DNA of 42,904 nucleotides, from the NCBI GenBank assembly GCA_009379895.1, contig WHSW01000008.1:1-42904 (forward strand). Direction: 5' to 3'. Of this stretch, positions 3,804 to 32,778 are shown piece after piece; position 1 is the first letter of the stretch, and every line of letters starts with the position of its first letter. This stretch comes from Solirubrobacterales bacterium (lineage in GTDB: Bacteria; Actinomycetota; Thermoleophilia; Solirubrobacterales; 70-9). Position numbers and translations under genes: made by a program. The notes beneath the pieces were generated by a model. That model was given only the letters and a program-made list of their open reading frames with translations. It was not told the DNA's origin and searched no databases.

Positions 3804-5039
3804 GTGCACCGCACGTACCGCTACCGCCTCTACCCGACCCGTCGCCAGCGCGAGGCGCTCGAGAGCCAGCTTCGCTTCGCCTGCAGCCTCTACAACGCCG
3901 CGCTTGAGCAGCGCCGCGATGCCTATCGCCGCTTGGGCAAGTCGCTCGGATATGGCGACCAGTCGGCGGAGCTGACCGAACTGCGCCGATCTGCCCCGGA
4001 GCTGTGCCCGCCGGAGGGGATGAACTACTGGTCGGCGCAGGAGGTGCTGCGTCGCCTCGATCGCGCCTTCGGCGCCTTCTTTCATCGTCTGCGGCGCGGA
4101 GAGAAGCCGGGCTACCCGCGATTCAGGTCGCACCGGCGCTTCAACACGCTGGCTTGGACTCAGAAGGGCAACGCGGGCGGCGTCGAGGTAACTGAGCAGG
4201 GACGCCTACGCTTGCAAGGCATCGGCTGCGTGAAGGTGAAGTGGCACCGCCCGATCCCCGCGGAGGCGACTCTCGGAGAGGTTCGGGTTACCCGCAAGGA
4301 AACAGGAGCGCGAGCGCGCTACCACGTCTCGGTCACGGCGAAGCTGCCGATCCCGGAGCCTCGCCCGGGCACGGGCGCGGCGGTTGGCATCGACATGGGC
4401 GTGCGGCGACTTGTCTCGCTCTCCACCGGCGAGCTGGTGTGTGGCCCGCGAGCAGGCCGCGCGAACGCGAAAAGGCTGCGACGCGGCTCGCGCAAGCTCG
4501 CCCGACGTAAGCGCGGCTCTGCGCGCAGGGCGAAGGCCGCGGCGCAGCTCGCACGCCACCGTGAGCGCGAGGCCAACCGACGACGAGATGCCGCCCACAA
4601 GCTGTCCCGGACCCTCGTCGAGCGCTTCGACCTGATTGCAGTCGAGAGGCTGCGGGTCGCCAACATGGTCCGCTCCGCCTCCGGCACGCTCGCAGCGCCC
4701 GGCGCCAATGTCGCGCAGAAGCGCGCTCTCAACCGGGAGATTGCCGACCAGGGCTGGGGGCAGTTGCTTTCGTACCTCGCCTACAAAGCGGAGGAGGCTG
4801 GTAGGCGCGTGGTCGCGGTCGAGCCGGCGGACACGTCGCGGACGTGCTGTGGATGCGGGGCTGTCGATGCGCGCAGCCGAGCTGGCCCGCGCTTTCGGTG
4901 TCTCGCCTGCGGACACGCCGAGGACGCCGACGTGAACGCCGCCAAGGTGATCCTCGCTCGCGCCCGTGCGCGGGAGGGAATCGAGCGGCCCGGACGGGGC
5001 CGTCAGGCCGCAACCGCCGCGCTTGCGGCGGTGGTCTGA
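3804..5039 (+). CDS. tnpB: TnpB, RNA-guided nuclease of IS200/IS605 element
   Basis: The 411-residue protein is full length for TnpB (ISDra2 TnpB is about 408). It starts at GTG 3804, 3 nt after tnpA. The N-terminus (YRLYPTRRQREAL, FACSLYNAALEQ) is typical. The RuvC triad is complete: D197 in GIDMGVRR, E281 in AVERLRVANM, and the Asp of EDADVNAA (about 374-376). A zinc ribbon is formed by C348/C351 and C366/C369. TnpB proteins are guided by an RNA from the element's right end and cleave DNA next to a transposon-associated motif, which retains the element at its site. With tnpA broken, this nuclease could still be active. Its 3' end overlaps the predicted guide-RNA scaffold. Confidence 0.93.
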   Translation: MHRTYRYRLYPTRRQREALESQLRFACSLYNAALEQRRDAYRRLGKSLGYGDQSAELTELRRSAPELCPPEGMNYWSAQEVLRRLDRAFGAFFHRLRRGEKPGYPRFRSHRRFNTLAWTQKGNAGGVEVTEQGRLRLQGIGCVKVKWHRPIPAEATLGEVRVTRKETGARARYHVSVTAKLPIPEPRPGTGAAVGIDMGVRRLVSLSTGELVCGPRAGRANAKRLRRGSRKLARRKRGSARRAKAAAQLARHREREANRRRDAAHKLSRTLVERFDLIAVERLRVANMVRSASGTLAAPGANVAQKRALNREIADQGWGQLLSYLAYKAEEAGRRVVAVEPADTSRTCCGCGAVDARSRAGPRFRCLACGHAEDADVNAAKVILARARAREGIERPGRGRQAATAALAAVV

Positions 5040-20508: not shown

Positions 20509-22206
20509 ATGCCAGTGGAACCGGCCCAGTATCCGCCCCCGTTCGACGAGCGCGAGCTGATCGCCGAGCCGACCGATCCCGAGGACGAGCGGATCGAGGT
20601 CGGGGTCGCGATCGTCGGCGGCGGCCCGGCCGGGCTGGCGTGCGCGAACCGCCTCATGGACCTGCTCGCCGACGAGCCCGAGCTTGCCGAGAAGCTCGGC
20701 GAGGTCCCGGTGGCGGTGATCGAGAAGGGCAAGGCGTGCGGGGCGCACACCCTGAGCGGCGCCAACCTGCGCCCCGGCCCGATGCGCGAGCTGTTTCCGG
20801 ACCTCGAGCCGGACGACTGGCCCTTCGCCTACCAGGAGGTGACCAAGGATGCGGTCTACCTGCTCACCAAGCGCGCGGCGCTGCCGCTCAAGCCGATGCC
20901 GCCGAACTTCCGCAACCACGGCAACTACGTGATCTCGGTCGCCAAGCTGTCGCGCTTTCTCGCCGAGCGGGCGGAGGAGAAGGGCGCCTACGTGCTTACC
21001 GAGACGGTCGCCGACCGGCTGCTGGTCTCCGATCGCATCGTCCGCGGGGTGCGCTCCGGCGACCGCGGCCGCGGCCGCGACGGCGAGCCGCTCGGCAACT
21101 TCGAGCCCGGCTCGGACGTGGTCGCCAAGGCGACCGTGCTCGCCGAGGGCACCCTCGGCCACCTGACCCAGGGCGCGCTCGACTACTTCGACCTGCACGG
21201 CCGGCTCCCGGTTCGCTGGGAGCTCGGCGTCAAGGAGGTCTGGGAGGTCCCCGAGCCTCTCGACCGCGTGATCCACACGATGGGCTGGCCGCTGCGCAAG
21301 CGCGCGAAGTGGAACGAGTTCGGCGGCAGCTTCATCTACCCGATGGGCGACGACAAGATCTCCATCGGGCTGGTGATCGGGCTCGACTACACCGACTCGA
21401 CACTCTCCTGCCACGACCTGCTCCAGGAGCTGAAGACGCATCCCTTCGTCAAGAAGATGCTCGCGGGCGGCAAGCGGGTGGCGTGGGGGGCGAAGACGAT
21501 CCCCTCCGGCGGCTACTACTCGATGCCGCGCAGCCTCTCGGTCCCCGGGATGGCGATCGCCGGCGACGCCGCGAACATGGTCAACGTGCCGACCCTGAAG
21601 GGGATCCACTACGCGATCCAGGCCGGCATGTACGCGGCCGAGGCGATCGTCGAGGCGCTTCGCAACGACTCGGTCAACCTCGAGGCCTACGACGAGCGGG
21701 TCCGCAAGTCGCAGATCGACTCGGACCTGTTCGAGTCGCGCAACATGCGCCCGCCGTTCTCGAAGGGCTTCTTCGTCGGCGGCGCGATGGCGAGCGCGAT
21801 GACGGTGACCAAGGGCCTGTTCCCGGGCGGCACCTGGAAGTACGAGCCCGACGCCGAGATCGAGATGGCCGACGGGGGCGCCGACCGCGACTACCCCGAG
21901 CCCGACAACGAGCTCACCTTCAACAAGCTCGACTCGGTCTTCCTCTCGGGCAACGCGACCCGCGACGACGCCCCGAACCACATCAAGATCCAGACCCACG
22001 TCCCGCGCGAGCTGGCCAAGACCTGGGTCAACCTGTGCCCGGCGCAGGTCTATGAGATCCCCGACGACCAGCTCGCCTCGGGCGCGCCCGAGGTCGACGT
22101 CCACGTCACGGCCTCGAACTGCGTCCAGTGCGGCGCGATCAACGCCAAGGGCGCGCGGCTGACGATGCCCGAGGGCGGCGACGGGCCGCTGTATCAGGAG
22201 GTCTGA
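20509..22206 (+). CDS. Electron transfer flavoprotein-quinone oxidoreductase
   Basis: The 565-residue flavoprotein has an N-terminal FAD-binding VGGGPAGLAC (36-45). The ETF-QO core follows (GAHTLSGANL, NFRNHGNYVISV, EGTLGHLT, GGSFIYPMGDDKISIGLVIGLDY, AGDAANMVNVPTLKGIHYAIQ), then the C-terminal ferredoxin-like part. It moves electrons from ETF to quinone at the membrane. The cluster motif is unusual. C510 (CPAQVYE), C538 and C541 (NCVQC) are present, but the fourth ligand of the normal CxxCxxC is I544. A 3Fe-4S or a modified 4Fe-4S cluster is possible. It follows etfA by 60 nt. Confidence 0.92.
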   Translation: MPVEPAQYPPPFDERELIAEPTDPEDERIEVGVAIVGGGPAGLACANRLMDLLADEPELAEKLGEVPVAVIEKGKACGAHTLSGANLRPGPMRELFPDLEPDDWPFAYQEVTKDAVYLLTKRAALPLKPMPPNFRNHGNYVISVAKLSRFLAERAEEKGAYVLTETVADRLLVSDRIVRGVRSGDRGRGRDGEPLGNFEPGSDVVAKATVLAEGTLGHLTQGALDYFDLHGRLPVRWELGVKEVWEVPEPLDRVIHTMGWPLRKRAKWNEFGGSFIYPMGDDKISIGLVIGLDYTDSTLSCHDLLQELKTHPFVKKMLAGGKRVAWGAKTIPSGGYYSMPRSLSVPGMAIAGDAANMVNVPTLKGIHYAIQAGMYAAEAIVEALRNDSVNLEAYDERVRKSQIDSDLFESRNMRPPFSKGFFVGGAMASAMTVTKGLFPGGTWKYEPDAEIEMADGGADRDYPEPDNELTFNKLDSVFLSGNATRDDAPNHIKIQTHVPRELAKTWVNLCPAQVYEIPDDQLASGAPEVDVHVTASNCVQCGAINAKGARLTMPEGGDGPLYQEV

Positions 22207-22208
22207 CG

Positions 22209-22225
22209 CCGGCGCGCAACGCCGG
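22209..22225. terminator. Bidirectional hairpin between convergent genes
   Basis: CCGGCG (22209-22214) pairs with CGCCGG (22220-22225) around CGCAA, in the 20-nt gap between the ETF-QO stop and the end of the convergent surface-protein gene. It is GC-rich without a clear T-run, as is common in high-GC actinobacteria. Confidence 0.45.
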
Positions 22226-22226
22226 A

Positions 22227-23378
22227 CTACCGCCGCTTGAGCTTGAGCTTCAGCCTCCTCGACTTGCGGTTCGGCTCGCCCCCGACCGGCGCGTAGGTGA
22301 TCTTGGCCCTGACCCTCACCTTCACCGCGCGCTCTTGCTTGGCGGCGCGCCTGAGCTTGCGTCTGGCCTTGCCGCGCGGGCGAATCGCCAGGCGCAGCCC
22401 GCCGACCTCCATGGCCCGCTTGGCTGCCCCGCGGACCCGCTTGGTCTTCCTCAGCCGCAGCTCGCCGGGCCCGGGCACCCGGACGGTCAGCTTCGCGGTG
22501 CCCTTCCTCGCGTTTCGCTTCAGCTTGCCGAAGGTGAACTGGTTCGAGGGGGGTGAGGCCGGCGCCGGGCCCAGGACCAGAGGAGGCTGAGGGGGCGGGG
22601 GCTGTGGGGGAGGAGGTGGAGGAGGCGACGGTGGCGGCAGCGCGTCGACCGCCACCCCGGCGGGGAAGCTGGCGCCGCCGATGAAGCTCTGATTCGCGCC
22701 CGAGCCGTCGAGGTTGGCGCGCCCGATCGTGTCGGCGCTGGCGTTCGCCCAGTAGACGTGGGCCCCGTCCACCGCCACCCCGTTGGGGTCGTCGGCGCCG
22801 GTGATGAAGTCCGCGTCGGCGCCCGAGCCATCGAGATTGGCGCGCCCGATCGTGTCGGCGCCGGAATTGGCCCAGTAGACGTGCACGCCGTCGACCGCGA
22901 CCGCAAAGGGGATGCTCGCGGCTGTGATGAATGTCTGGTCGGCACCCGAGCCGTCGAGGTTGGCGCGCCCGATCGTGTTGTTGCCCCAGTTCGTCCAGTA
23001 GACGTGGGCGCCGTCCACCGCCACCCCCTCGGGGCCGTCGGCGCCGGCGATGAAGCTCTGATTCGCGCCCGAGCCGTCGAGGTTGGCGCGCCCGATCGTG
23101 TCGGTGCCGAAAGCACCGTTCGCCCAATAGACGTGGGCGCCGTCCACCGCCACCCCCTCGGGGAAGTCGGCGCCTGCGATGAAGCTTTGGTCGGCGCCCG
23201 AGCCGTCGAGATTGGCGCGCCCGATCGTGCTCGTGCCAGCGCCTCTGTTCGCCCAGTAGACGTAGGCCTCGGCGCGTGCAGCGAGGACCGCGGCGCCGAT
23301 GACGAGCGCGGCGAGGACGAGCGCGGCGCGGCGTACGTTGACCGAGCCGAGGCGCGCGCCGAGGCTCACCGCCGGCAC
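22227..23378 (-). CDS. Secreted YWTD-like beta-propeller protein with cationic C-terminal domain
   Basis: The 383-residue protein has a signal peptide (hydrophobic ALVLAALVIGAAVLAARAEA ending near residue 38). Five repeats of about 43 residues follow, each with VYWAN..TIGRANLDGSG and a GVAVDG turn, which is the YWTD/NHL-like propeller pattern. Next comes a linker of Pro with a few Ser and Gln (about 250-280), then a Lys/Arg-rich beta domain (FTFGKLKRNARKGTAKLTV, VPGPGELRLRKTK) ending in LKLKLKRR. It is likely exported and cell-surface located; a binding partner is unknown. GTG 23378 is the first start and another GTG lies three codons later. It is the last gene of a minus-strand run of secreted proteins. 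Confidence 0.8.
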   Translation of the reverse strand: MPAVSLGARLGSVNVRRAALVLAALVIGAAVLAARAEAYVYWANRGAGTSTIGRANLDGSGADQSFIAGADFPEGVAVDGAHVYWANGAFGTDTIGRANLDGSGANQSFIAGADGPEGVAVDGAHVYWTNWGNNTIGRANLDGSGADQTFITAASIPFAVAVDGVHVYWANSGADTIGRANLDGSGADADFITGADDPNGVAVDGAHVYWANASADTIGRANLDGSGANQSFIGGASFPAGVAVDALPPPSPPPPPPPQPPPPQPPLVLGPAPASPPSNQFTFGKLKRNARKGTAKLTVRVPGPGELRLRKTKRVRGAAKRAMEVGGLRLAIRPRGKARRKLRRAAKQERAVKVRVRAKITYAPVGGEPNRKSRRLKLKLKRR

Positions 23379-23421
23379 CCCCGAGGACCGATTGTCGTTC
23401 GTGCCGGTACGGTCGGCAACC

Positions 23422-24000
23422 TCATGGCTCGACGATGCAGGTCAGCGGATAGCTCGGCGGGTCGACGTTACATTCGGCGCGGACGATCACGACCACGATC
23501 TTGGCCCGAGCGTGGAAGCCGCGCATGCGCACCACGACCCTGGCGGCCCCGCGCTCCTCGAGGGCCGCGCGGATCAGCCTCAGCACGCGGCGCCCGCCGT
23601 TCTCGCGGTCGACCACCCATTCGTCGGCCTTGTCCTTCTCGCGAGTGTCGACGCGCTTGTCGTCGCGGAAAAGGCCCGGCGCGTTCGCCCGGTCGCCGTC
23701 GTGGCTGATCGTGAAACGCAGCGAGTCGGCGCGCTTGGCGTAGGCCGCGAGGTGGTAGCGCGGGGAGCTGCCGTCCCTGACGTCGGCGTAATAGAGCCTG
23801 TCCAGCTTCGTCCATCGCGCAGTCTCGAGATCGCGCGCGCCGGCCTGGGCGGCCCCGGCGGCGACCCCGAACGCGAGCGCGAAGAGCGCGATCAGGCCGG
23901 CGCCCCGGGCTCTGCACCGGTGCGGCGCCCCGCTCACCGCCGCATCCGCTCGCAGTTGCGCCCCATCCCGCCGCCGCGCGCTCCCCTGACCCGGTCGCAC
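23422..24000 (-). CDS. Secreted hypothetical protein
   Basis: No family was recognised. The frame has a hydrophobic export signal (GLIALFALAFGVAAGAAQA) and then about 140 soluble residues with alternating basic and acidic stretches (YYADVRDGSSPRYHLAAYAK, DDKRVDTREKDKADEW) and a C-terminal CNVDPPSYPLTC pair of Cys that could form a disulfide. GTG 24000 is chosen because GAGGAGG lies 10 nt upstream, an arrangement repeated exactly in front of the gene starting at 27887. GTG 23937 would give a more compact signal peptide. Unlike its neighbours it lacks the Pro linker and cationic domain, but its leader and N-terminus are homologous to those of the YVTN-propeller gene. Confidence 0.65.
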   Translation of the reverse strand: MRPGQGSARRRDGAQLRADAAVSGAPHRCRARGAGLIALFALAFGVAAGAAQAGARDLETARWTKLDRLYYADVRDGSSPRYHLAAYAKRADSLRFTISHDGDRANAPGLFRDDKRVDTREKDKADEWVVDRENGGRRVLRLIRAALEERGAARVVVRMRGFHARAKIVVVIVRAECNVDPPSYPLTCIVEP

Positions 24001-24045
24001 CTCGTTCGCGCCTCCTCGATCTCTCATGTCTCGACCAGGCCGCGC

Positions 24046-25965
24046 TCAGCGCAGCCTGATCCTCACCTTCTCGGTCACGCGGTTGCCGGCCGCGTCCGTC
24101 CCCTCGACCTTGATCCGCGCGCTCAGCCGCGCCTCGCGCTTGGCCGCCCGCTTGGCGTTCTTGAAATCCGGCTTGGCAAAGCGAAGCTTGAGCCTCTCGC
24201 GCCGGCCCGCCCGCAGGGTGGCCCGGTCGCGCTTTAACTTGAAGGTCTCGCGCTTGGCCTTGGCCGGCCGCTCGTGTGCCGCCCCGCGGCCCCGCTTCGC
24301 CGCCCGCGCGACCGCCTTGCCCGTGGCGATCACCCGGCAGGGCTCGTCGCAACGCACCCTGATCTTCACCTTCCGGCGCAGCCTCGCCCGCTTCTTCGCC
24401 GTCACCTCGAGTTTCGGGGCCTTGGTATCGGGCAGGGCGGCGGGGGGCGGAGGCGCGCCGCCGCCGGTCGGAGGTGGGGGCCCGCCAGGCGGAGACGGCG
24501 ATGGCGACGGAGACGGCGGCGGCGGCGCCTGCAACTCGGCGGCGCCGATGTCCGAGCCGTCGCCCGCCGGCACGTTGGCGATCGAGCCGAAGTCGGAGGG
24601 GCGGCGGAGGCCACGCTGGTCGGCGCCGAGCCCCGCGGCGATCGCGCGATCGATGGCCGGGCTGGATGGTCCCGGGAGGCGGGTCCGGGTCGGCCCGCCG
24701 TTGTCCTGGAGCGGCCCGAGCCGGGGATTCGTGGCCGGCTGGTCGTGTGCCTGGTCGAGGAAGCAGGTGTCGCCGGTCTCGAGGTTGAAGTCCAGTGAGT
24801 CGAGCATGCCGCCGACGAGCGAGCGACAGTCGTTGCCGGCGAAGATCGTGGCCTCGAAGCGCGCCGCGCCGCCACCGACGCTCTCGATGCCCGCACCCGC
24901 CGGAGCAGCGTTCCCGGCCAGCGTCACGTGCCTGAGGAGCACCTGCGGCGTGCGCACCATCCCGCCCGCGCCACGCTGGATCCCGCCGCCGGTGAGCGTC
25001 GCCGCGTTGGCGCTGATCGTGCTGTTGGTGACGACCGTGGACCCGTCGCTCAGGGAGAGCCCTCCGCCTCGATCCGCGGAGTTCCCGCTCACCGTGCTGC
25101 GCGACAGGGTGAAGTCGTTGCCCCTGAAGCGCACCCCGCCACCCTCGCCCCCCGGCTTCTGGTTTCCGGCGATCGTCGAGCCGGTGATCTGCAGGTCGTT
25201 GGCGTGAGCCGCGGGATCGGCGAGGAAGTGAATCCCTCCTCCGCTGGTGTTGTCGACGATCCTCGAGCCGGTGATCGTCGTCGGTCCCTGGCTCTGTAGC
25301 CCGCCGCCCGAGACGCCACTCGTGGCGTTGCCCGAGATCGTCGAGTGGGTGATCGTGAGTGCACCCCCGAGATGAGCGAAGGGACTGAAGCGGACGCCGC
25401 CCCCGCCGGCGGTCCCCCGGTCGACGTTGCCGGTGACCGATACCCCGGTCAGGCTCAGGTCCCCGCCCAAGTGGCTGATCCCGCCGCCGCCGGCGAGAGC
25501 GTCCCCCCCGGTGACGGTCAGCCCGCTGAGCCGCAGTGGCTCGGCCGACTGGATCACGCGCTCCTCGGCCACCGTCTGCTCGATCGTGGTCGTCGCCGCA
25601 CCCGCCCCGGTGAGCGTGAGCTCGTCATTGCGCAGGTGCGCGCCCCATGCCAGATGGTCGAAGAAGCCGGTGTCCCGCGTCAGCACGTAGGTGCCGGCGG
25701 GGAGGGCGATCGAGTCCCGATCGGCGGGATCGTCGTGCAGGTCGAGCTCCTCGAACGCGGCCCGCAGCGTGCAGGCGCCACCCGGCGTCGCGCATGCCCC
25801 GTTCCCGGGGAGAGCGTCCGAGGCATCGGCGAACGAGTCGACCGTGACCTCGAGCGCGCTCGCCGGCGGGGCCGCGATCAGCGCCGCGGCCAACCCGAGC
25901 AGGGCGGCCACCGTCGCGGCGAGCAAGGTCGCTGCCCTGTGCCCGCGTGATCGTTGGCTTGTCAT
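24046..25965 (-). CDS. Secreted parallel beta-helix protein (CSLREA-like) with cationic C-terminal domain
   Basis: The 639-residue protein starts at ATG 25965, with GGGGAGG 5 nt upstream. A signal peptide (to about residue 38) is followed by a CSLREA-like segment (TVDSFADASD, ACTLRAAFEE). A long right-handed beta-helix rich in STISGN and STVSGNSA rungs occupies about 90-470 and ends in GADQRG and SDIGAAEL, typical of choice-of-anchor-Q proteins. A Pro/Ser/Gly linker leads to a Lys/Arg-rich domain with one Cys pair (RCDEPCRV) and a DAAGNRVTEKVRI strand. It is likely surface exposed. The gene begins 2 nt after the stop of the YVTN gene, so they are co-transcribed. Confidence 0.82.
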   Translation of the reverse strand: MTSQRSRGHRAATLLAATVAALLGLAAALIAAPPASALEVTVDSFADASDALPGNGACATPGGACTLRAAFEELDLHDDPADRDSIALPAGTYVLTRDTGFFDHLAWGAHLRNDELTLTGAGAATTTIEQTVAEERVIQSAEPLRLSGLTVTGGDALAGGGGISHLGGDLSLTGVSVTGNVDRGTAGGGGVRFSPFAHLGGALTITHSTISGNATSGVSGGGLQSQGPTTITGSRIVDNTSGGGIHFLADPAAHANDLQITGSTIAGNQKPGGEGGGVRFRGNDFTLSRSTVSGNSADRGGGLSLSDGSTVVTNSTISANAATLTGGGIQRGAGGMVRTPQVLLRHVTLAGNAAPAGAGIESVGGGAARFEATIFAGNDCRSLVGGMLDSLDFNLETGDTCFLDQAHDQPATNPRLGPLQDNGGPTRTRLPGPSSPAIDRAIAAGLGADQRGLRRPSDFGSIANVPAGDGSDIGAAELQAPPPPSPSPSPSPPGGPPPPTGGGAPPPPAALPDTKAPKLEVTAKKRARLRRKVKIRVRCDEPCRVIATGKAVARAAKRGRGAAHERPAKAKRETFKLKRDRATLRAGRRERLKLRFAKPDFKNAKRAAKREARLSARIKVEGTDAAGNRVTEKVRIRLR

Positions 25966-25967
25966 GC

Positions 25968-27887
25968 CTACCTCCCCTCCGCCGCTGGTGCTGTCCCAGC
26001 CCGGCCGGCCCCCGCGCGGTGGCCGCCCCGCAGCTTCACCGTGCGCCTCGCGCGCGCCCGGTTGCCGGCCGGGTCGGTGGCCGAGATCTTGAGCCTCGCC
26101 CGCACCCTGGTGTGCTTGGCGCCGACCGCGCGCCGCGCCTTTTGCAGCGTGCGCCTCGAGAGCCGCAGCTTCAGGGTGCGCTTCTCGCCGGGCGCCAGGG
26201 TCTTGGTCTTGGCCCTCAGCTGCAGGCGCTTGGCGCGCCGCTTTCCCTTCTTCTTTATGACCAGCCTGCCGCTCGCGCACACGCGCGCCGGTTCGTCGAC
26301 GCTCGCCTTGAGCTTCACCTTGCGCCCGAGGCGCTGGCGTCGCTCGCCCGAGAGACGCAGCCCCGGGGGTCTCGTGTCGCGTGCCGGGGGTGGCTGCACC
26401 CCGACGAGCGGCGGCGGCACCACGACCGTGAGCCTGGTGACCGCGGCGTTTGAGCCGTTGCACGACGCGGTCTGACCGGTGTAGACGACGGTGTTCGAGC
26501 AGCCCTCGTCGTCGGTGACCCGCAGGGTCGCCGTGTAGGTGCCCGGCGCGGCGTAGGCGTGGGTCGGGGCCGGGTCGGCGCCGCCGAGGGTGTGGCCGTC
26601 GCCGAAGCTCCAGGCATAGCCCGTCACCGCGCCGTCGGGGTCGCTGGAGGCGCGGGCGTCGAAGCCGATCCGGAGCGCGCCGACGAGCCGCGCCGTCGCC
26701 GCCGCGCGCGGACCCTGGTTCGGGCGGATCACGAGCGACTGGAAGCTCGGGAACGCCACCCCCGCCGCGAATGGCGAGCCCGCCAGCTCGGCGAGCGAGC
26801 CGTCGGCGGCGACCGCGTAGCCCGAGACGTCGTCGGAGAAGGTGTTGGACACATAGAGGTGCCGGCCGTCGGGGCTCGCGGCGATGCCCTGCGGGGAGTT
26901 TCCCGCCGCGAACGGCGAGCCCGCCAGCTCGGCGAGCGAGCCGTCGGCGGCGACCGCGAAGCTCGAGACCTCGTTGGAGTCGAAGTTGGCGACGTAGAGG
27001 CGTCCGCCGTCCGGGCCGGCGGCGATGCCCCGCGGGAACAGCCCCGCCGCGAACGGCGAGCCCGCCAGCTCCGAGAGCGACCCGTCGGCGGCGACCGCGT
27101 AGCCCGAGACGTCGTTGGAGGTGAGGTTGGCGACGTAGAGGCGCCTGTCATCGGGGGTGGCGGCGACGCCGAGCGGGCCGTTCCCCGCCGCGAACGGCGA
27201 GCCCGCCAGCTCCGAGAGCGAGCCGTCGGCGGCGACCGCGTAGCCCGAGACGTCGTCGGAGAGGCGGTTGGCGACGTAGACGTGCCGGCCGTCGGGGCTC
27301 GCGGCGATGCCCTCCGCGGCCAAGCTCGCGGCGAACGGCGAGCCCGCCAGCTCTGTGAGGGAGCCGCCGGGACCGATCGAGAAGCCCGAGATGTCGTCGG
27401 AGGTGTCGTTGGCGACGTAGAGCCGCCTGCCGTCGGGGCTCACGGCGATGCCCGACGGCCCGTCACCGGCCGCGAACGGCGATCCCGCCAGCTCTGTGAG
27501 CGCGCCGTCGGCACCGATCGAGAAACCCGAGACGTTGTCGGAGCCGTCGTTGGCGACGTAGAGGCGCCGGCCATCGGGACTGACGGCGACTCCCTCGGGA
27601 GTGCCGCCCGCGCCGAACGGCGAGGCGGGGATCGGCGCCGGCCAGCCGCTGTCGGCGAGCCCGAGCGCCGCGACGGCGTCGGAGCCCACGCCGCTGACGT
27701 ACACGGTTCCCTTCGCCTGCGCCCCCGCCGTCGGCACGAGTAGGACCGCTAGCACCGCCGCGAGCCAAGTCGCGCCCAGCCCTGCGGCACGGTGCCGACG
27801 CCCTGCGCGTCGCACCCCACTCACCGTCGCACCCGCTTGCATTTGCGCTCCACCCGATCGCCGCCTCGGCTCCCGACTCACTGGCAC
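25968..27887 (-). CDS. Secreted seven-bladed YVTN propeller with PKD and cationic C-terminal domain
   Basis: The 639-residue protein has a signal segment (WLAAVLAVLLVPTAGAQA, about 40-57). Seven blades follow, each about 45 residues with YVAN.SDDVSGYAVAADGSL.ELAGSPFAAG, giving a closed lactonase-like propeller. A PKD domain comes next (FDARASSDPDGAVTGYAWSF, YTATLRVTDDEGCS). Last is a Lys/Arg-rich domain (GRKVKLKASVDEPARVC, ISATDPAGNRARARRTVKL). The linker after PKD is short and Pro-rich. It is likely cell-surface located. GTG 27887 has GGGAGG 10 nt upstream; ATG 27842 is an alternative. The blades are nearly identical in DNA, a sign of recent internal duplication. Confidence 0.83.
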   Translation of the reverse strand: MPVSREPRRRSGGAQMQAGATVSGVRRAGRRHRAAGLGATWLAAVLAVLLVPTAGAQAKGTVYVSGVGSDAVAALGLADSGWPAPIPASPFGAGGTPEGVAVSPDGRRLYVANDGSDNVSGFSIGADGALTELAGSPFAAGDGPSGIAVSPDGRRLYVANDTSDDISGFSIGPGGSLTELAGSPFAASLAAEGIAASPDGRHVYVANRLSDDVSGYAVAADGSLSELAGSPFAAGNGPLGVAATPDDRRLYVANLTSNDVSGYAVAADGSLSELAGSPFAAGLFPRGIAAGPDGGRLYVANFDSNEVSSFAVAADGSLAELAGSPFAAGNSPQGIAASPDGRHLYVSNTFSDDVSGYAVAADGSLAELAGSPFAAGVAFPSFQSLVIRPNQGPRAAATARLVGALRIGFDARASSDPDGAVTGYAWSFGDGHTLGGADPAPTHAYAAPGTYTATLRVTDDEGCSNTVVYTGQTASCNGSNAAVTRLTVVVPPPLVGVQPPPARDTRPPGLRLSGERRQRLGRKVKLKASVDEPARVCASGRLVIKKKGKRRAKRLQLRAKTKTLAPGEKRTLKLRLSRRTLQKARRAVGAKHTRVRARLKISATDPAGNRARARRTVKLRGGHRAGAGRAGTAPAAEGR

Positions 27888-27931
27888 CTCACTCGCGCCT
27901 CCCGATCTCGCATGTCTCGATCAGCCCGCGC

Positions 27932-29107
27932 TCAGCGCAGCCCGATCCTCACCCTCTCGGTGCTCGTGTTGCCGGCCGGGTCGGTGGCCCGGACCTTGAT
28001 CCGGACGCTGAGGCGCGCGTCGCGCTTGGCCGCCCGCTTGGCCCGCTTGAAGTCCCGCCCGGCGAAGTGAAGCTTGAGCTTCTCGCGCCGGTTCGCCCGC
28101 AGGTTGGCCCGGTCGCGCGTCAGCTTGAAAGTCTTGCGCTTGGCCTTCGCCGGGCGCTCGTGCGCCGCCCCGTGGCCCTTGCGCTTCGCCGCCCGCGCGA
28201 CTGCCTTGCCCCTGGCGATCACCCGGCAGGGCTCATCGCAGCGCACCTTGATCTTCACCTTCCGGCGCAGCCTCGCCCGCCTCTTTGCCTTCACCTGGAG
28301 CTTCGGAGCCGTCGTGTCGGGCAGGGCGCCGGGGGGCGGAGCGGCGCCACCGCCGGTCGCAGGCGGGGGCCCGCCGGGGCTCGTGACGATCGGGCTCTCG
28401 GGCGGTGTCGTGTCGGTCGCCTTCCAGAGCTCGACGCCGTTGACGCCGTCGTCGGCGGCGAAGTAGAGGGTGCCGCCGGCGTCGATGAGGTTTAGGGGGC
28501 TGCTATCGGCGGCACCGGGGTTGATGTCGGCGACCTCGATCGTGCCGGCCGCGGTGCCGTCGGACCGCCAGAGCTCCTTGCCGCTGGAGCCGTTGTCGGC
28601 GCTGAAGAGGACGGTGCCGTCGACGTCCGTGAGGTTGCCGAGGCCGCTGGCGCCGCCCGGGTTGATGTCGGCGACCTCGACCGTGCCGGCGGCGGTGCCG
28701 TCGGACTTCCACAGCTCGCGGTCGGTGCCGTCGAAGGCCTGCAAGAACAGCGTGACGCCGACGCTGGTGAGCTCCTGGGGGTCGCTGCCGCCACTCGGGT
28801 TGATGTCGGCGACCTGGACCGTACCGGCGGCGGATCCGTCGGACTTCCACAGCTCGCTGTCGGTGCCGTCGAAGGCATGGAAGAAGACGGTGCCGCCGAC
28901 GTTCGTGAGCTCGTCGAAGACACTGAGACTGTCCGCGGCGGGGTTGATGTCGCTGACCAGCTCTGCGTGGTCGGGCGGACCGGCGAGGGCGGTGGCGCCC
29001 GTGAGGACGCTCACTGCCGAGGATGCGATGAGCAGCCGCAGCACGAGTGCGAGTCGCCCGATCCGTGCTCGGTTGCCCCGTTCGGCGCTCGTTCGCATTC
29101 CCCGCAT
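27932..29107 (-). CDS. Secreted ELWxxDGT-repeat protein with cationic C-terminal domain
   Basis: The 391-residue protein starts at ATG 29107 with a good GGGAGG site 5 nt upstream. After a signal peptide (LVLRLLIASSAVSVLTGATALA) come four repeats of the ELWKSDGTAAGT type with FF.AFDGTD and VADINPGG elements, a known bacterial surface-protein repeat; the last repeat is cut short as ELWKATD. A short Pro/Gly linker leads to a Lys/Arg-rich domain almost identical to that of the beta-helix protein, including RCDEPCRV and ATDPAGNTSTERVRI. It is the first gene of the minus-strand surface-protein run and is divergent from the LAL regulator 82 nt away. Confidence 0.82.
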   Translation of the reverse strand: MRGMRTSAERGNRARIGRLALVLRLLIASSAVSVLTGATALAGPPDHAELVSDINPAADSLSVFDELTNVGGTVFFHAFDGTDSELWKSDGSAAGTVQVADINPSGGSDPQELTSVGVTLFLQAFDGTDRELWKSDGTAAGTVEVADINPGGASGLGNLTDVDGTVLFSADNGSSGKELWRSDGTAAGTIEVADINPGAADSSPLNLIDAGGTLYFAADDGVNGVELWKATDTTPPESPIVTSPGGPPPATGGGAAPPPGALPDTTAPKLQVKAKRRARLRRKVKIKVRCDEPCRVIARGKAVARAAKRKGHGAAHERPAKAKRKTFKLTRDRANLRANRREKLKLHFAGRDFKRAKRAAKRDARLSVRIKVRATDPAGNTSTERVRIGLR

Positions 29108-29165
29108 CTCCACCTCCCGGCATGGCCAGCCCGCGAGCGCTCGGTGACCGCGCCCGCATCGCAGG

Positions 29166-29171
29166 TAGCAT
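29166..29171 (+). promoter_or_regulatory. Possible -10 box (TAGCAT) of the LAL regulator gene
   Basis: TAGCAT lies 17 nt before the chosen GTG 29189, which would leave a leader of about 10 nt. No clear -35 is seen. Confidence 0.3.
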
Positions 29172-29188
29172 GTATCCCGGGGTTCACG

Positions 29189-32110
29189 GTGACAATTGGG
29201 GAGATCCCTACCCTCGTCCCTACTCTTCGACGTGGTCGGCCGGAAGGGGCGATTTCGCCGCTGGTAGGGCGGGCGGACGAGGTTGTGCGCCTCGAGCTGG
29301 CTCTCGGCGAGCTGAAGGAGGGGCGCCCGCGCCTCTTGGAGATCGTCGGCGAGCCCGGCATCGGCAAGACCCGCCTGCTCGACGAGCTCTGTCTGCGGGC
29401 GGATCGCGCGGGCCTGACAACCCTGCGAGCGCGAGCCGCCCAGGCCGAGCAGAGTGTCCCGTTCGCCCCCTTCGTGACCGCGCTCGACGACCACGTCGCG
29501 GGCGCCGCCGATCGCTGCCGCGAGGAGCTCTCGGAGGCGGCCGTCGGTGAGCTCGGCGCGATCTTCGGATCGCTCGGTGACCTGGGCGCCGTCAGCCCTC
29601 ATCAAGCGGCGCCGGAGCGCTTCCACGCCCACCGCGCCGTCCGCGCTCTACTGGAATTGCTGGCGCGGAAGGAAGCGCTCGTGCTCGCCCTCGACGACCT
29701 GCACTGGGCCGACGACGCCTCGCTGGAGTTGATCGCCCACCTGCTGCGCAACCCGCCGCGCGGGCCGGTCCTGATCGCTTTCGCGCGGCGCCCGGGAGTG
29801 CTCGAGGGTCGCCCCCGGGACGCGCTCGACGCCGCCGTGCGCGAGGGCGAGCTGTGGCGACTGGAGCCGGGACCGCTGGCCGCGGAGCATGCCCGCACGC
29901 TGCTCGGCGCGCTCGGGCGGTCGCTGGCCGAGGCGGCACGGCGCGAGGCGGGGGGAAATCCCTTCTATCTCGAGCAGCTCGCTGCACATCCCGCAGCACT
30001 CATGCCCACGACAGCGACCGCCGGCGCCTCCGAGTCCGACCTGCCGGCCTCCGTCGGCGCGGCGCTGGGGGCGGAGATCGAGAGCCTCGGCGGCGCCACC
30101 CGGCTGGCGCTGCATGGCGCGGCGGTGGCCGGCGATCCGTTCGAGCCCGAGCTCGCGGCCCAGGCCGCAGAGCTCGATCGCTCGACGCTCCTCGACGCGC
30201 TCGAGATCGCCCTCGACCACGACCTGGTCCAGCCGGACGAGGATGCGCGGCGGCTCGGCTTTCGCCATCCGATCGTGCGCCGCGCGATCTATGCGGACGC
30301 GCCGCCGGGATGGCGCCTTGACGCCCATCGGCGCGTCGCGGCGGCGCTCGCCGCGCGGGGTGCTTCGCCACTGGCTCAGGCCCACCACGTGGCTCGATCG
30401 GCGCGGGTGGGTGACGGCGCCGCCGTCGCGCTTCTGCGGGCGGCCGCCGAGGCGGCTCGGGTGAGCGCGCCGGCCAGCGCCGCGCACTGGTACGGGGAGG
30501 CGCTGCGGCTGCTCGGCGATCGGGCCGACGACCGCTTGGAGCTGCTGGCGCCGATGGCCACCGCGCTCGCCGCCGCAGGCGACTTCGCGGGCGCCCAGGC
30601 GGCGCTGGAGCAGGGCCTGCGAAGTTGGCCCACCGACCCCGGCGGCGGGCGCACGCGCCTGGTGGCGGAGTGCGCGGCGTGCGAGCGCCTGCTCGGACGC
30701 CACGCCGAGGCCACGGCGCGCCTGGGCACCGAGCTGGAGCGGGTGGGCGACGCCGGTTCCGCCGATGGCGTGGCCCTGCTGGTCGGCCTGACGGTCGATG
30801 CCTTCTATACCGGCGACTGGCCGCAAGCGCGAGAGCTCGCCGCCCGTGCGCACGCCGGCGCGGAGGCCCTCGACGACCGCGCGATGCTGGCCGCCACCTC
30901 GGCGTTGATGGCCGTGACTTCCCAGTTCACCAGCCCCGCGAGCGAGTCGCTCGCTCACCTGGACGCGGGCCTCGAGCTCGCCGACGCCCTGCCCGACGCC
31001 GCCTGCGCCGAGCGCGCCGAGGCGATTCAGTGCCTGTGCATGGCCGCCTACTTCCTCGGCCGCTTCCCCGAGAGCGCCGCGCAGGCCGATCGCTTCCTGC
31101 GGATCGCGAAGGCGACCGGCCAGGGCTCGGCGATCAACACACCGCGCTTCGGCCGCAGCATGGCGCTGGTCGAGCTGGGCAGGATCGCGGAGGCATTGGA
31201 GGATGCCGAGACGGCGCTCGATGCGGCCCGCCTGACCGACAACCCCTTCGCGACCCACAACGCGCTGCTGGTCGTCTGCCACGCGGCGACGCACGCGGGC
31301 GAGCTCGACCTGGCGCTCGCGGCCGCCGGCGAGATAGAGACGCTGGCCGCCGGGCTCGAGGCCAATACGATGACCGCCGGCGGTGCCTGGATACGTGCGG
31401 AGGCGCTGCTCGAGTGCGGGCTGCGCGAGCGCTGCGAGGCGCCGCTTCGCTCCTCGCTCGCCGGCCCGGCGCCCGTCGCGCCGTTCGTCCGCACCCGCTC
31501 TCTCGAGCTGCTCGTCGCCTGCGCGCTGGAGCGCGGCGATCACGCCGAGGCGGCGGAGCTTGCCGGCACGATCGAGCGCCAGGCGCACGGTCGGCCGCTC
31601 GGCGAGGCGCTCGGGCGGCGGGCGTGGGGAGCCGTGCTGCTCGCCCGCGGCGATGCCCCCGGAGCCGTCGCCGCGGCGCGCGAGGCGATCGCCGGCCTGG
31701 AGGAGATCGGCGCGGCGCTCGAGGCCGAGCGCTCGCGGATCCTGCTCGGGCGGGCGCTGGCCGCCGGCGGAGAGCGCCAGGCCGCGATTCGGCAGCTCGA
31801 GACGGCGCGGGAGCGACTCGCCGAGTTCGGCGCTCACCGCGACCGCGAGGGAGCCGAGCGGGAGCTGCGGCGCCTGGGCGCGCGGTTCGGCCGGCCTGGA
31901 GCCGCGACTCGAGACGGCGGCGTCGGCGCGCTCACCGCGCGCGAGCGCGAGGTGGCCGAGCTGGTCGCCACCGGGCGGACCAACAAGCAGGTCGGGGCGG
32001 CGTTATTCGTCTCCGACAAGGCGGTCGAGAAGCATCTCTCCAGCGTCTACGCGAAGCTTGGGATCCCGGGACGCGGGGCGCTCGGCGCCGCGCTCGCCGA
32101 CGATCGCTGA
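29189..32110 (+). CDS. LuxR-family regulator with AAA ATPase domain (LAL type)
   Basis: The 973-residue protein has an N-terminal AAA/STAND ATPase (Walker A GEPGIGKTR with K60; Walker B ALDDLHWADD near residue 160-170). A long helical repeat region (about 400-880) with TPR-like helices follows, then a C-terminal LuxR HTH (LTAREREVAELVATGRTNKQ, VSDKAVEKHLSSVYAKLGI). Such LAL regulators are large ATP-dependent activators, often of neighbouring gene clusters. GTG 29189 is the first plausible start; the PLVGR box that opens the ATPase lies about 25 residues in. The divergent surface-protein run is the natural candidate target. One TTA Leu codon occurs in the HTH (AALFVS). Confidence 0.88.
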   Translation: MTIGEIPTLVPTLRRGRPEGAISPLVGRADEVVRLELALGELKEGRPRLLEIVGEPGIGKTRLLDELCLRADRAGLTTLRARAAQAEQSVPFAPFVTALDDHVAGAADRCREELSEAAVGELGAIFGSLGDLGAVSPHQAAPERFHAHRAVRALLELLARKEALVLALDDLHWADDASLELIAHLLRNPPRGPVLIAFARRPGVLEGRPRDALDAAVREGELWRLEPGPLAAEHARTLLGALGRSLAEAARREAGGNPFYLEQLAAHPAALMPTTATAGASESDLPASVGAALGAEIESLGGATRLALHGAAVAGDPFEPELAAQAAELDRSTLLDALEIALDHDLVQPDEDARRLGFRHPIVRRAIYADAPPGWRLDAHRRVAAALAARGASPLAQAHHVARSARVGDGAAVALLRAAAEAARVSAPASAAHWYGEALRLLGDRADDRLELLAPMATALAAAGDFAGAQAALEQGLRSWPTDPGGGRTRLVAECAACERLLGRHAEATARLGTELERVGDAGSADGVALLVGLTVDAFYTGDWPQARELAARAHAGAEALDDRAMLAATSALMAVTSQFTSPASESLAHLDAGLELADALPDAACAERAEAIQCLCMAAYFLGRFPESAAQADRFLRIAKATGQGSAINTPRFGRSMALVELGRIAEALEDAETALDAARLTDNPFATHNALLVVCHAATHAGELDLALAAAGEIETLAAGLEANTMTAGGAWIRAEALLECGLRERCEAPLRSSLAGPAPVAPFVRTRSLELLVACALERGDHAEAAELAGTIERQAHGRPLGEALGRRAWGAVLLARGDAPGAVAAAREAIAGLEEIGAALEAERSRILLGRALAAGGERQAAIRQLETARERLAEFGAHRDREGAERELRRLGARFGRPGAATRDGGVGALTAREREVAELVATGRTNKQVGAALFVSDKAVEKHLSSVYAKLGIPGRGALGAALADDR

Positions 32111-32154
32111 ACCAGGTGGATGAGCCTCGAGCGGCACCTCCCGGCGATCCCGAG

Positions 32155-32778
32155 ATGCTGAGCTCCGACGATTCGGCGGAGCTGCGCGTCGAGCTGCGCG
32201 ACGGCGCGGCGGTGATCGTGCGGCCGATCCGGCCGACCGACCGCGAGGCGATCCGGGGCGCCTTCGCGCGGCTCAGCGAGCGGTCGCGCTACCAGCGCTT
32301 CATGACCGCGATCACCGCGCTCTCGGAGTCGCAGCTCGACTACCTGACCGAGGTCGACCACCACGACCACGAGGCGCTGGTCGCCTTCGACGCCGTGGCC
32401 GGCGAGGGGGTCGGGGTGGGGCGCTTCGTGCGCCTCGCCGACGGCACCAGCGCCGAGGCGGCGGTGACGGTGATCGACGACTGGCAGGGGCGCGGCCTCG
32501 GCACGGCGCTCTGCAACCTGCTCGCCGAGCGCGCCCGCGACGAGGGCATCGCCCGCTTCACCGCGCTGCTGCTCGCCGAGAACGACCAGATGCACGACGT
32601 GCTCGCCTCGCTCGGCCCGGCCAAGGTGCTCTCGCGCGACTCGGGCACGGTCGTGGTCGAGGTCGCGATCCCGGAGCGTGGGATCGGGGACCACATGGCC
32701 GGCGTGCTGCGGGTCGTCGCCGGTGGCACCGTCGAGCTCGCGACGCCCCCGTGGGGGCTGCGCGAAGCGGGGGATTGA
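32155..32778 (+). CDS. GNAT-family N-acetyltransferase
   Basis: The 207-residue protein contains a GNAT core. The opening strand VIVRPIRPTDREAIRGAFAR and the acetyl-CoA loop DDWQGRGLGTALCNLL (Q/RxxGxG) are clear, and the middle holds YLTEVDHHDHEALVAFD. Similar domains in actinobacteria occur alone or fused to acyl-CoA synthetases and acetylate Lys of metabolic enzymes, but the acceptor is not known here. ATG 32155 is preferred to an upstream in-frame GTG (32116). It follows the LAL regulator by 44 nt on the same strand. Confidence 0.88.
   Translation: MLSSDDSAELRVELRDGAAVIVRPIRPTDREAIRGAFARLSERSRYQRFMTAITALSESQLDYLTEVDHHDHEALVAFDAVAGEGVGVGRFVRLADGTSAEAAVTVIDDWQGRGLGTALCNLLAERARDEGIARFTALLLAENDQMHDVLASLGPAKVLSRDSGTVVVEVAIPERGIGDHMAGVLRVVAGGTVELATPPWGLREAGD

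What the first reader, a model, noticed from the sequence alone, without database searches (positions are those of the whole stretch)
22227..29107. Run of secreted repeat proteins sharing a cationic C-terminal domain on unrelated scaffolds
Five minus-strand genes in a row encode exported proteins. Four combine different repeat scaffolds (YWTD-like propeller, beta-helix, seven-bladed YVTN propeller with PKD, ELWxxDGT) with a Pro-rich linker and a Lys/Arg-rich C-terminal domain. Two of these domains are almost identical and carry RCDEPCRV; a third is diverged (VDEPARVC); the fourth is of a different but similarly basic type. A shared tail on unrelated modules suggests a common anchor, for example electrostatic binding to wall polymers, and a set of interchangeable surface displays. 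I know of no described system with this set.
Basis: partly seen in the sequence, partly recalled or inferred. Interest (0 to 1): 0.72.

Follow-up and report, generated by a model that had tools for sequence, protein, structure and literature searches.

The report
Class-specific cationic C-terminal Ig-like domain
Several unrelated exported proteins of this soil-type bacterium end in the same uncatalogued, very positively charged immunoglobulin-like domain, which recurs at the very end of many other exported proteins but only in its bacterial class, and most likely holds those proteins on the negatively charged cell surface.

Summary
Five minus-strand genes (22,227-29,107) encode exported proteins, and four end in a Pro-rich linker plus a Lys/Arg-rich domain. 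That domain is not a disordered basic tail. AlphaFold with 31 relatives gives a confident beta-sandwich (pLDDT 90.5), with an apparent Cys-Cys staple (CDEPC) and Lys/Arg on the outward strand positions. No Pfam or NCBIfam family covers it. It occurs in 80 of 299 sampled genomes of the class and in no sampled genome outside it. It sits within 50 residues of the C-terminus in 68 of 70 copies, on at least 12 scaffold types. Lysine is 14-15% of the tails against 1.7% of the sampled proteome. The "different" fourth tail belongs to a second, remotely homologous family with the same habits. The two near-identical tails come from a 572-bp segmental duplication (84.6% identity). The five-gene set is not a fixed system: it lies in a roughly 10-kb island between genes that are adjacent in relatives. 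Best explanation: a C-terminal surface-retention module acting by electrostatics on wall or surface polyanions. The function is inferred, not shown. Verdict: a real, uncatalogued, class-specific variant of a known kind (C-terminal surface-retention or sorting domain).

The parts
27932..29107 (-). P0005: exported ELWxxDGT-repeat protein, Pro-rich linker, type-1 cationic Ig-like tail
   Evidence: TIGR04534 E 1.1e-62
27935..28321 (-). type-1 tail of P0005 (RCDEPCRV)
   Evidence: 80% identical to the P0003 tail
25968..27887 (-). P0004: exported lactonase-type propeller + PKD + type-1 tail
26028..26381 (-). type-1 tail of P0004 (both Cys lost: VDEPA)
24046..25965 (-). P0003: exported beta-helix / choice-of-anchor Q protein + type-1 tail
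24049..24432 (-). type-1 tail of P0003 (RCDEPCRV); the domain modelled
   Evidence: pLDDT 90.5, pTM 0.81
22227..23342 (-). P0001: exported LDLR-B/YWTD-type propeller + type-2 cationic tail (a GTG at 23378 is an alternative start)
22230..22562 (-). type-2 tail of P0001; 7 matches in this genome, 26 of 61 relatives
23422..24027 (-). P0002: exported protein without family or tail; its 5' end is homologous to the 5' end of P0004
27812..28378 (-). segmental duplication copy A: linker + tail + stop + intergenic + 5' end of P0004
   Evidence: 84.6% identity over 572 columns to 23925-24489
23925..24489 (-). segmental duplication copy B: linker + tail + stop + intergenic + 5' end of P0002
29177..32110 (+). 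large ATP-binding LuxR-family (LAL) regulator, divergent from P0005, in the same island (exact start not determined)
   Evidence: AAA_16 1.1e-28; GerE 4.9e-13
22207..32154 (.). island between ETF-QO (20509-22206) and the GNAT gene (32155-32778); these two genes are adjacent in relatives

Best explanation
The tail is a class-specific cationic immunoglobulin-like beta-sandwich that serves as a C-terminal surface-retention module. Each protein is exported through Sec/SPase I (signal peptide: seen in the sequence). The propeller, beta-helix or other scaffold folds as the outward display. The Pro-rich linker (seen) spaces it from the terminal domain, whose outward strand faces and helix carry Lys/Arg (shown on the alignment). 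That domain then binds anionic wall or surface glycopolymers by distributed electrostatics, keeping proteins that have no LPXTG motif, no membrane anchor and no lipobox on the cell (inferred). New proteins acquire the module by segmental duplication or fusion of linker plus tail, as P0003/P0005 show (shown at the DNA level).
For: Terminal: 68 of 70 type-1 copies within 50 aa of the C-terminus, 60 within 10; the two exceptions are the first of two tandem copies. Type 2: 30 of 31. Charge: nearly all tails +10 to +43 while the rest of the same protein is usually negative, often -5 to -68. Lys 14-15% of the window's tails against 1.7% of the proteome sample at about 72% GC, so not a base-composition effect. 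Strands alternate buried hydrophobic (0.9-1.0) with exposed positions that are often Lys/Arg; no single Lys/Arg position is invariant and no exposed aromatic is conserved, which fits distributed electrostatics rather than a lectin pocket. Fold: pLDDT 90.5. Scaffolds include choice-of-anchor Q and other known surface or repeat modules. No sortase found in this genome or its same-genus relative, although 14 of 21 genomes searched have one. LytR-CpsA-Psr ligases, which attach anionic polymers to peptidoglycan, in 21 of 21.
Against: No binding or localisation data exist. Tail counts do not track absence of sortase: the same-genus genome G001 has neither a sortase nor a type-1 tail. Charge varies; L014's tail is only +6 and two divergent copies in L127 are near zero. 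The genome is about 88% complete, so absences are weak. Whether these bacteria make anionic wall polymers is inferred from LCP proteins only.
Confidence: 0.47

Rival explanations
1. Matrix or environment binding: the cationic Ig-like tail binds extracellular polyanions that are not the cell's own wall, such as extracellular DNA, exopolysaccharide or negatively charged soil surfaces, so the proteins become matrix components.
For: The same charge pattern serves any polyanion; no specific ligand motif is conserved.
Against: The scaffolds include enzyme-like and choice-of-anchor modules usually held on cells; confinement to one class suggests a lineage-specific partner.
Confidence: 0.2
2. Generic accessory beta-sandwich: a C-terminal Ig-like cap that adds stability or solubility, its charge having drifted up in this lineage, without any retention role.
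For: Ig-like domains are common accessory modules; best PDB matches are diverse Ig/FnIII-like sandwiches with only moderate TM-scores.
Against: Ordinary Ig, PKD and FnIII modules occur internally and in arrays, whereas this one is terminal in 68 of 70 copies; the roughly 8-fold Lys enrichment and a negative remainder of the protein argue for selection on charge.
Confidence: 0.2
3. Sorting or export signal: the tail is recognised by a dedicated machine, as the T9SS C-terminal beta-sandwich is, and may be cleaved and replaced by a glycan.
For: Architecture as in T9SS cargo: signal peptide, unrelated scaffolds, terminal Ig-like domain (PMC4804311).
Against: None of 31 tails matches any NCBIfam sorting-domain model; SprA_N not found in 21 genomes, but that search rang in no control, so it is inconclusive. 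Distributed charge without an invariant exposed motif is not what a machine-read signal would predict.
Confidence: 0.12

Closest known systems
Teichoic-acid-binding C-terminal domain of Lactobacillus S-layer proteins (SlpA_III, IPR024968)
   Same: C-terminal, positively charged, holds exported proteins on anionic wall polymers without covalent linkage (PMC11181022)
   Different: Different fold description (paired SlpA motifs with phosphate sites YxY....KxxN); no sequence match to any Pfam family here
T9SS C-terminal domain (type A, RgpB CTD)
   Same: Terminal Ig-like beta-sandwich shared by unrelated exported proteins (PMC4804311)
   Different: T9SS is described in Bacteroidota and crosses an outer membrane; tails match no NCBIfam sorting-domain model; T9SS machine not found, search inconclusive
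Bacterial Ig-like / FnIII-like domains
   Same: Predicted beta-sandwich; starts D-x-x-x-P and has D-x-A-G-N before the last strand
   Different: Terminal instead of serial, strongly cationic, Cys pair across a hairpin; no family match significant
NCBI choice-of-anchor proteins
   Same: P0003's scaffold is choice-of-anchor Q (NF041518); such families are named for variable C-terminal anchors (own knowledge)
   Different: The anchor here would be an uncatalogued one

Membership tests
T9SS cargo C-terminal domain | C-terminal Ig-like beta-sandwich on unrelated exported proteins | tested here: met
T9SS cargo C-terminal domain | Matches a T9SS sorting-domain model | tested here: not met
   no NCBIfam model matched by more than 2 of 31 members and none is a sorting domain
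T9SS cargo C-terminal domain | T9SS translocon in the genome | tested here: inconclusive
   SprA_N absent from 21 genomes, but no control rang
SlpA/SLAP teichoic-acid-binding domain | Membership by sequence (Pfam) | tested here: not met
SlpA/SLAP teichoic-acid-binding domain | Binds (lipo)teichoic acid | not testable with these tools
   needs biochemistry
Sortase (LPXTG) surface proteins | LPXTG + membrane segment + basic tail at the C-terminus | tested here: not met
   sequences end in the beta-sandwich; no sortase in the genome (88% complete)
Known bacterial Ig-like/FnIII families (Big_*, Fn3-like) | Significant match to a curated model | tested here: not met
   best Fn3-like E 0.023, 3 of 31 members
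Known bacterial Ig-like/FnIII families (Big_*, Fn3-like) | Ig-like beta-sandwich fold | tested here: met
   pLDDT 90.5; best PDB matches are Ig-like/FnIII-like sandwiches, TM up to about 0.6 (moderate)
Surface-retention domain (functional class) | Keeps the protein on the cell | not testable with these tools
   inferred from position, charge and lack of other anchors

The most novel reading that the evidence does not exclude
Bacteria of this class use a sortase-independent display system of their own: two remotely homologous superfamilies of cationic C-terminal Ig-like domains act as general anchors for a large share of the exported proteome, and spread between scaffolds by duplication of linker-tail blocks.
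Probability: 0.35. Interest if true: 0.68.

Novelty: new variant of a known kind. Interest (0 to 1): 0.5.

Why it matters
How members of this widespread, mostly uncultured soil actinobacterial class hold proteins on their surface was not described in any paper I could find. A recognisable terminal domain gives a sequence handle on their surface proteome: a profile can list the displayed proteins in every genome. The duplication in this window also shows, at the DNA level, how an unrelated scaffold picks up a ready-made tail.

Tried and rejected
A single-sequence fold of P0003 was poor overall (pLDDT 47.2) but already showed an all-beta tail; the alignment-based fold replaced it. One automatic tail alignment had a row in the wrong frame (A2) and was not used. 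BFVD fold search gave nothing significant. The idea that the basic tails reflect GC-driven Arg was rejected on Lys content. The idea that the P0001 tail is unrelated was rejected by profile comparison with column-shuffled controls (score 40.5 against at most 13.3). P0002 as a hidden tail carrier: no match to either tail profile. Literature searches for the domain in this group returned nothing.

Full report
1. Five minus-strand genes at 22,227-29,107 encode proteins with signal-peptide-like N-termini. Their scaffolds are an LDLR-B/YWTD-type propeller (P0001), a beta-helix with choice-of-anchor Q (P0003), a lactonase-type propeller with PKD (P0004) and ELWxxDGT repeats (P0005); P0002 has no recognised family. 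P0001, P0003, P0004 and P0005 end in a Pro-rich linker and a Lys/Arg-rich domain of 111-129 aa with net charge +33 to +37. The signal peptides end in A-x-A with no lipobox, and no protein ends in LPXTG or a membrane segment (read directly from the sequence).

2. The tail is a folded domain. A model from 31 related tails, with the P0003 tail as query, has pLDDT 90.5 and pTM 0.81: seven strands and one helix. The best PDB matches are Ig-like, FnIII-like and related sandwiches at moderate TM-scores, so "Ig-like beta-sandwich" is as precise as the evidence allows. No Pfam or NCBIfam family matches significantly, and no PDB sequence is convincingly related. Across 67 copies, strand positions alternate between hydrophobic (0.9-1.0) and exposed residues that are often Lys/Arg. 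The most constant non-core residues are D2, P6, E30, G76, D113, G116 and N117. Two cysteines facing each other across a hairpin (C28, C32; CDEPC) are both present in 48 copies, both absent in 18 and single in one, as expected of a disulfide; the copies are related, so the Fisher P of 2e-15 overstates this. P0004 has lost both.

3. The tail is terminal and cationic as a family. Of 70 copies, 68 lie within 50 residues of the C-terminus and 60 within 10; the other two are the first of two tandem copies in L040 and L129. Nearly all are strongly positive while the rest of the same protein is usually negative. Lys is 14-15% of the window's tails and 1.7% of 90,644 sampled residues of this genome at about 72% GC. 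In the sampled part of the genome, exported proteins outside the type-1 family average +3.6 over their last 110 residues; the sample is small (14 proteins) and my signal-peptide rule is heuristic.

4. Distribution. The type-1 profile matches 29 of 61 relatives, 80 of 299 genomes drawn from the class and 7 of 296 drawn from the phylum, all seven within the class. Only 15 first-look candidates per genome were scored in the large searches, so these are lower bounds. Scaffolds carrying type 1 include glucose/sorbosone dehydrogenase propellers, lactonase + PKD, ELWxxDGT, virginiamycin-B-lyase-like and NHL propellers, RTX and TSP3 repeats, carboxypeptidase-regulatory-like repeats, Big domains and a beta-helix (Pfam and NCBIfam; NHL read by eye), and, from reading the sequences, a subtilisin-like protease, cell-wall-binding-2-like and lysyl-oxidase-like proteins.

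5. The fourth tail. P0001's tail matches 26 of 61 relatives, seven times in this genome. In 30 of 31 copies it is within 50 residues of the C-terminus, always positive, again on many scaffolds. Profile-profile comparison of types 1 and 2 gives probability 93% and score 40.5; twenty column-shuffled versions of type 2 give at most 13.3, so composition alone does not explain it. I read them as remote homologues. A third variant with a wider Cys spacing appears in L009, L010 and others and was not followed.

6. How the window came to look like this. Bases 28,378-27,812 and 24,489-23,925 are 84.6% identical over 572 columns. The block runs from the Pro linker through tail, stop codon and intergenic DNA into the 5' end of the next gene (P0004 and P0002). 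The near-identical tails of P0003 and P0005 are therefore one duplicated block joined to two scaffolds, and the 5' ends of P0002 and P0004 came along. ETF-QO and a GNAT gene flank the cluster; they are adjacent in the same-genus genome (L172), in G004, G009 and G005, and in L041 and L043 (some of these named MAGs may be the same genomes as the G handles). About 10 kb (22,207-32,154), holding the five genes and a divergent LAL-type regulator, therefore looks inserted in this lineage. On a tree of 63 tails, few forks of which are well supported, scaffold labels need 25 changes against 38.5 on shuffling and a minimum of 18: tails mostly travel with their scaffold, while dehydrogenase, RTX, lactonase and ELWxxDGT scaffolds each appear in several places. 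Neighbouring tail-bearing genes occur in seven other genomes (7 pairs within 6 kb, 0.56 expected over all), several of them plain duplicates, but an RTX + TSP3 pair recurs in G056 and G210.

7. Function. Shown: export signal, linker, terminal cationic beta-sandwich (predicted), class restriction, spread by duplication. Inferred: retention on an anionic surface. Supporting context: no sortase in this genome (88% complete) or its same-genus relative, while 14 of 21 genomes searched have one, and LCP ligases in 21 of 21. Against: tail number does not follow sortase absence. The nearest functional precedent is the positively charged teichoic-acid-binding C-terminal domain of Lactobacillus S-layer proteins (PMC11181022); the nearest architectural precedent is the T9SS C-terminal Ig-like domain (PMC4804311). 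Membership in either was tested and not met by sequence. I rate retention at 0.47, binding to other polyanions 0.20, a generic module 0.20 and a sorting signal 0.12.

8. Verdict. The finding is real. Its core is an uncatalogued, class-specific domain family; the particular five-gene set is a local island, not a conserved system. Novelty: new variant of a known kind. Interest 0.5.

Noticed in passing
window 22207-32154: About 10-kb island between ETF-QO and a GNAT gene that are adjacent in the same-genus genome and other relatives; it holds the five genes and a divergent LAL-type LuxR regulator.
   Followed up: partly
window 23925-24489 and 27812-28378: The duplicated block includes the 5' ends of the following genes, so P0002 and P0004 share a homologous leader although the rest differs.
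   Followed up: yes
L009 1501-1854, L010 1501-1851, L104, L110, L114: A third variety of cationic C-terminal domain with wider Cys spacing (CP...C.G) in the same genome, on DUF5122 (delta-60-like) repeats and other scaffolds.
   Followed up: no
genomes G000 and G001: No sortase (PF04203) found in this genome or its same-genus relative, while 14 of 21 genomes searched have one.
   Followed up: partly
L040 and L129: Two similar proteins with two tandem type-1 domains, the only non-terminal copies seen.
   Followed up: no
L125 and L128: Neighbouring RTX and TSP3 proteins, both with type-1 tails, recur in two genera (G056, G210).
   Followed up: no
window 3804-5039 (+): ORF that by eye resembles an IS200/IS605-type TnpB; not tested.
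   Followed up: no
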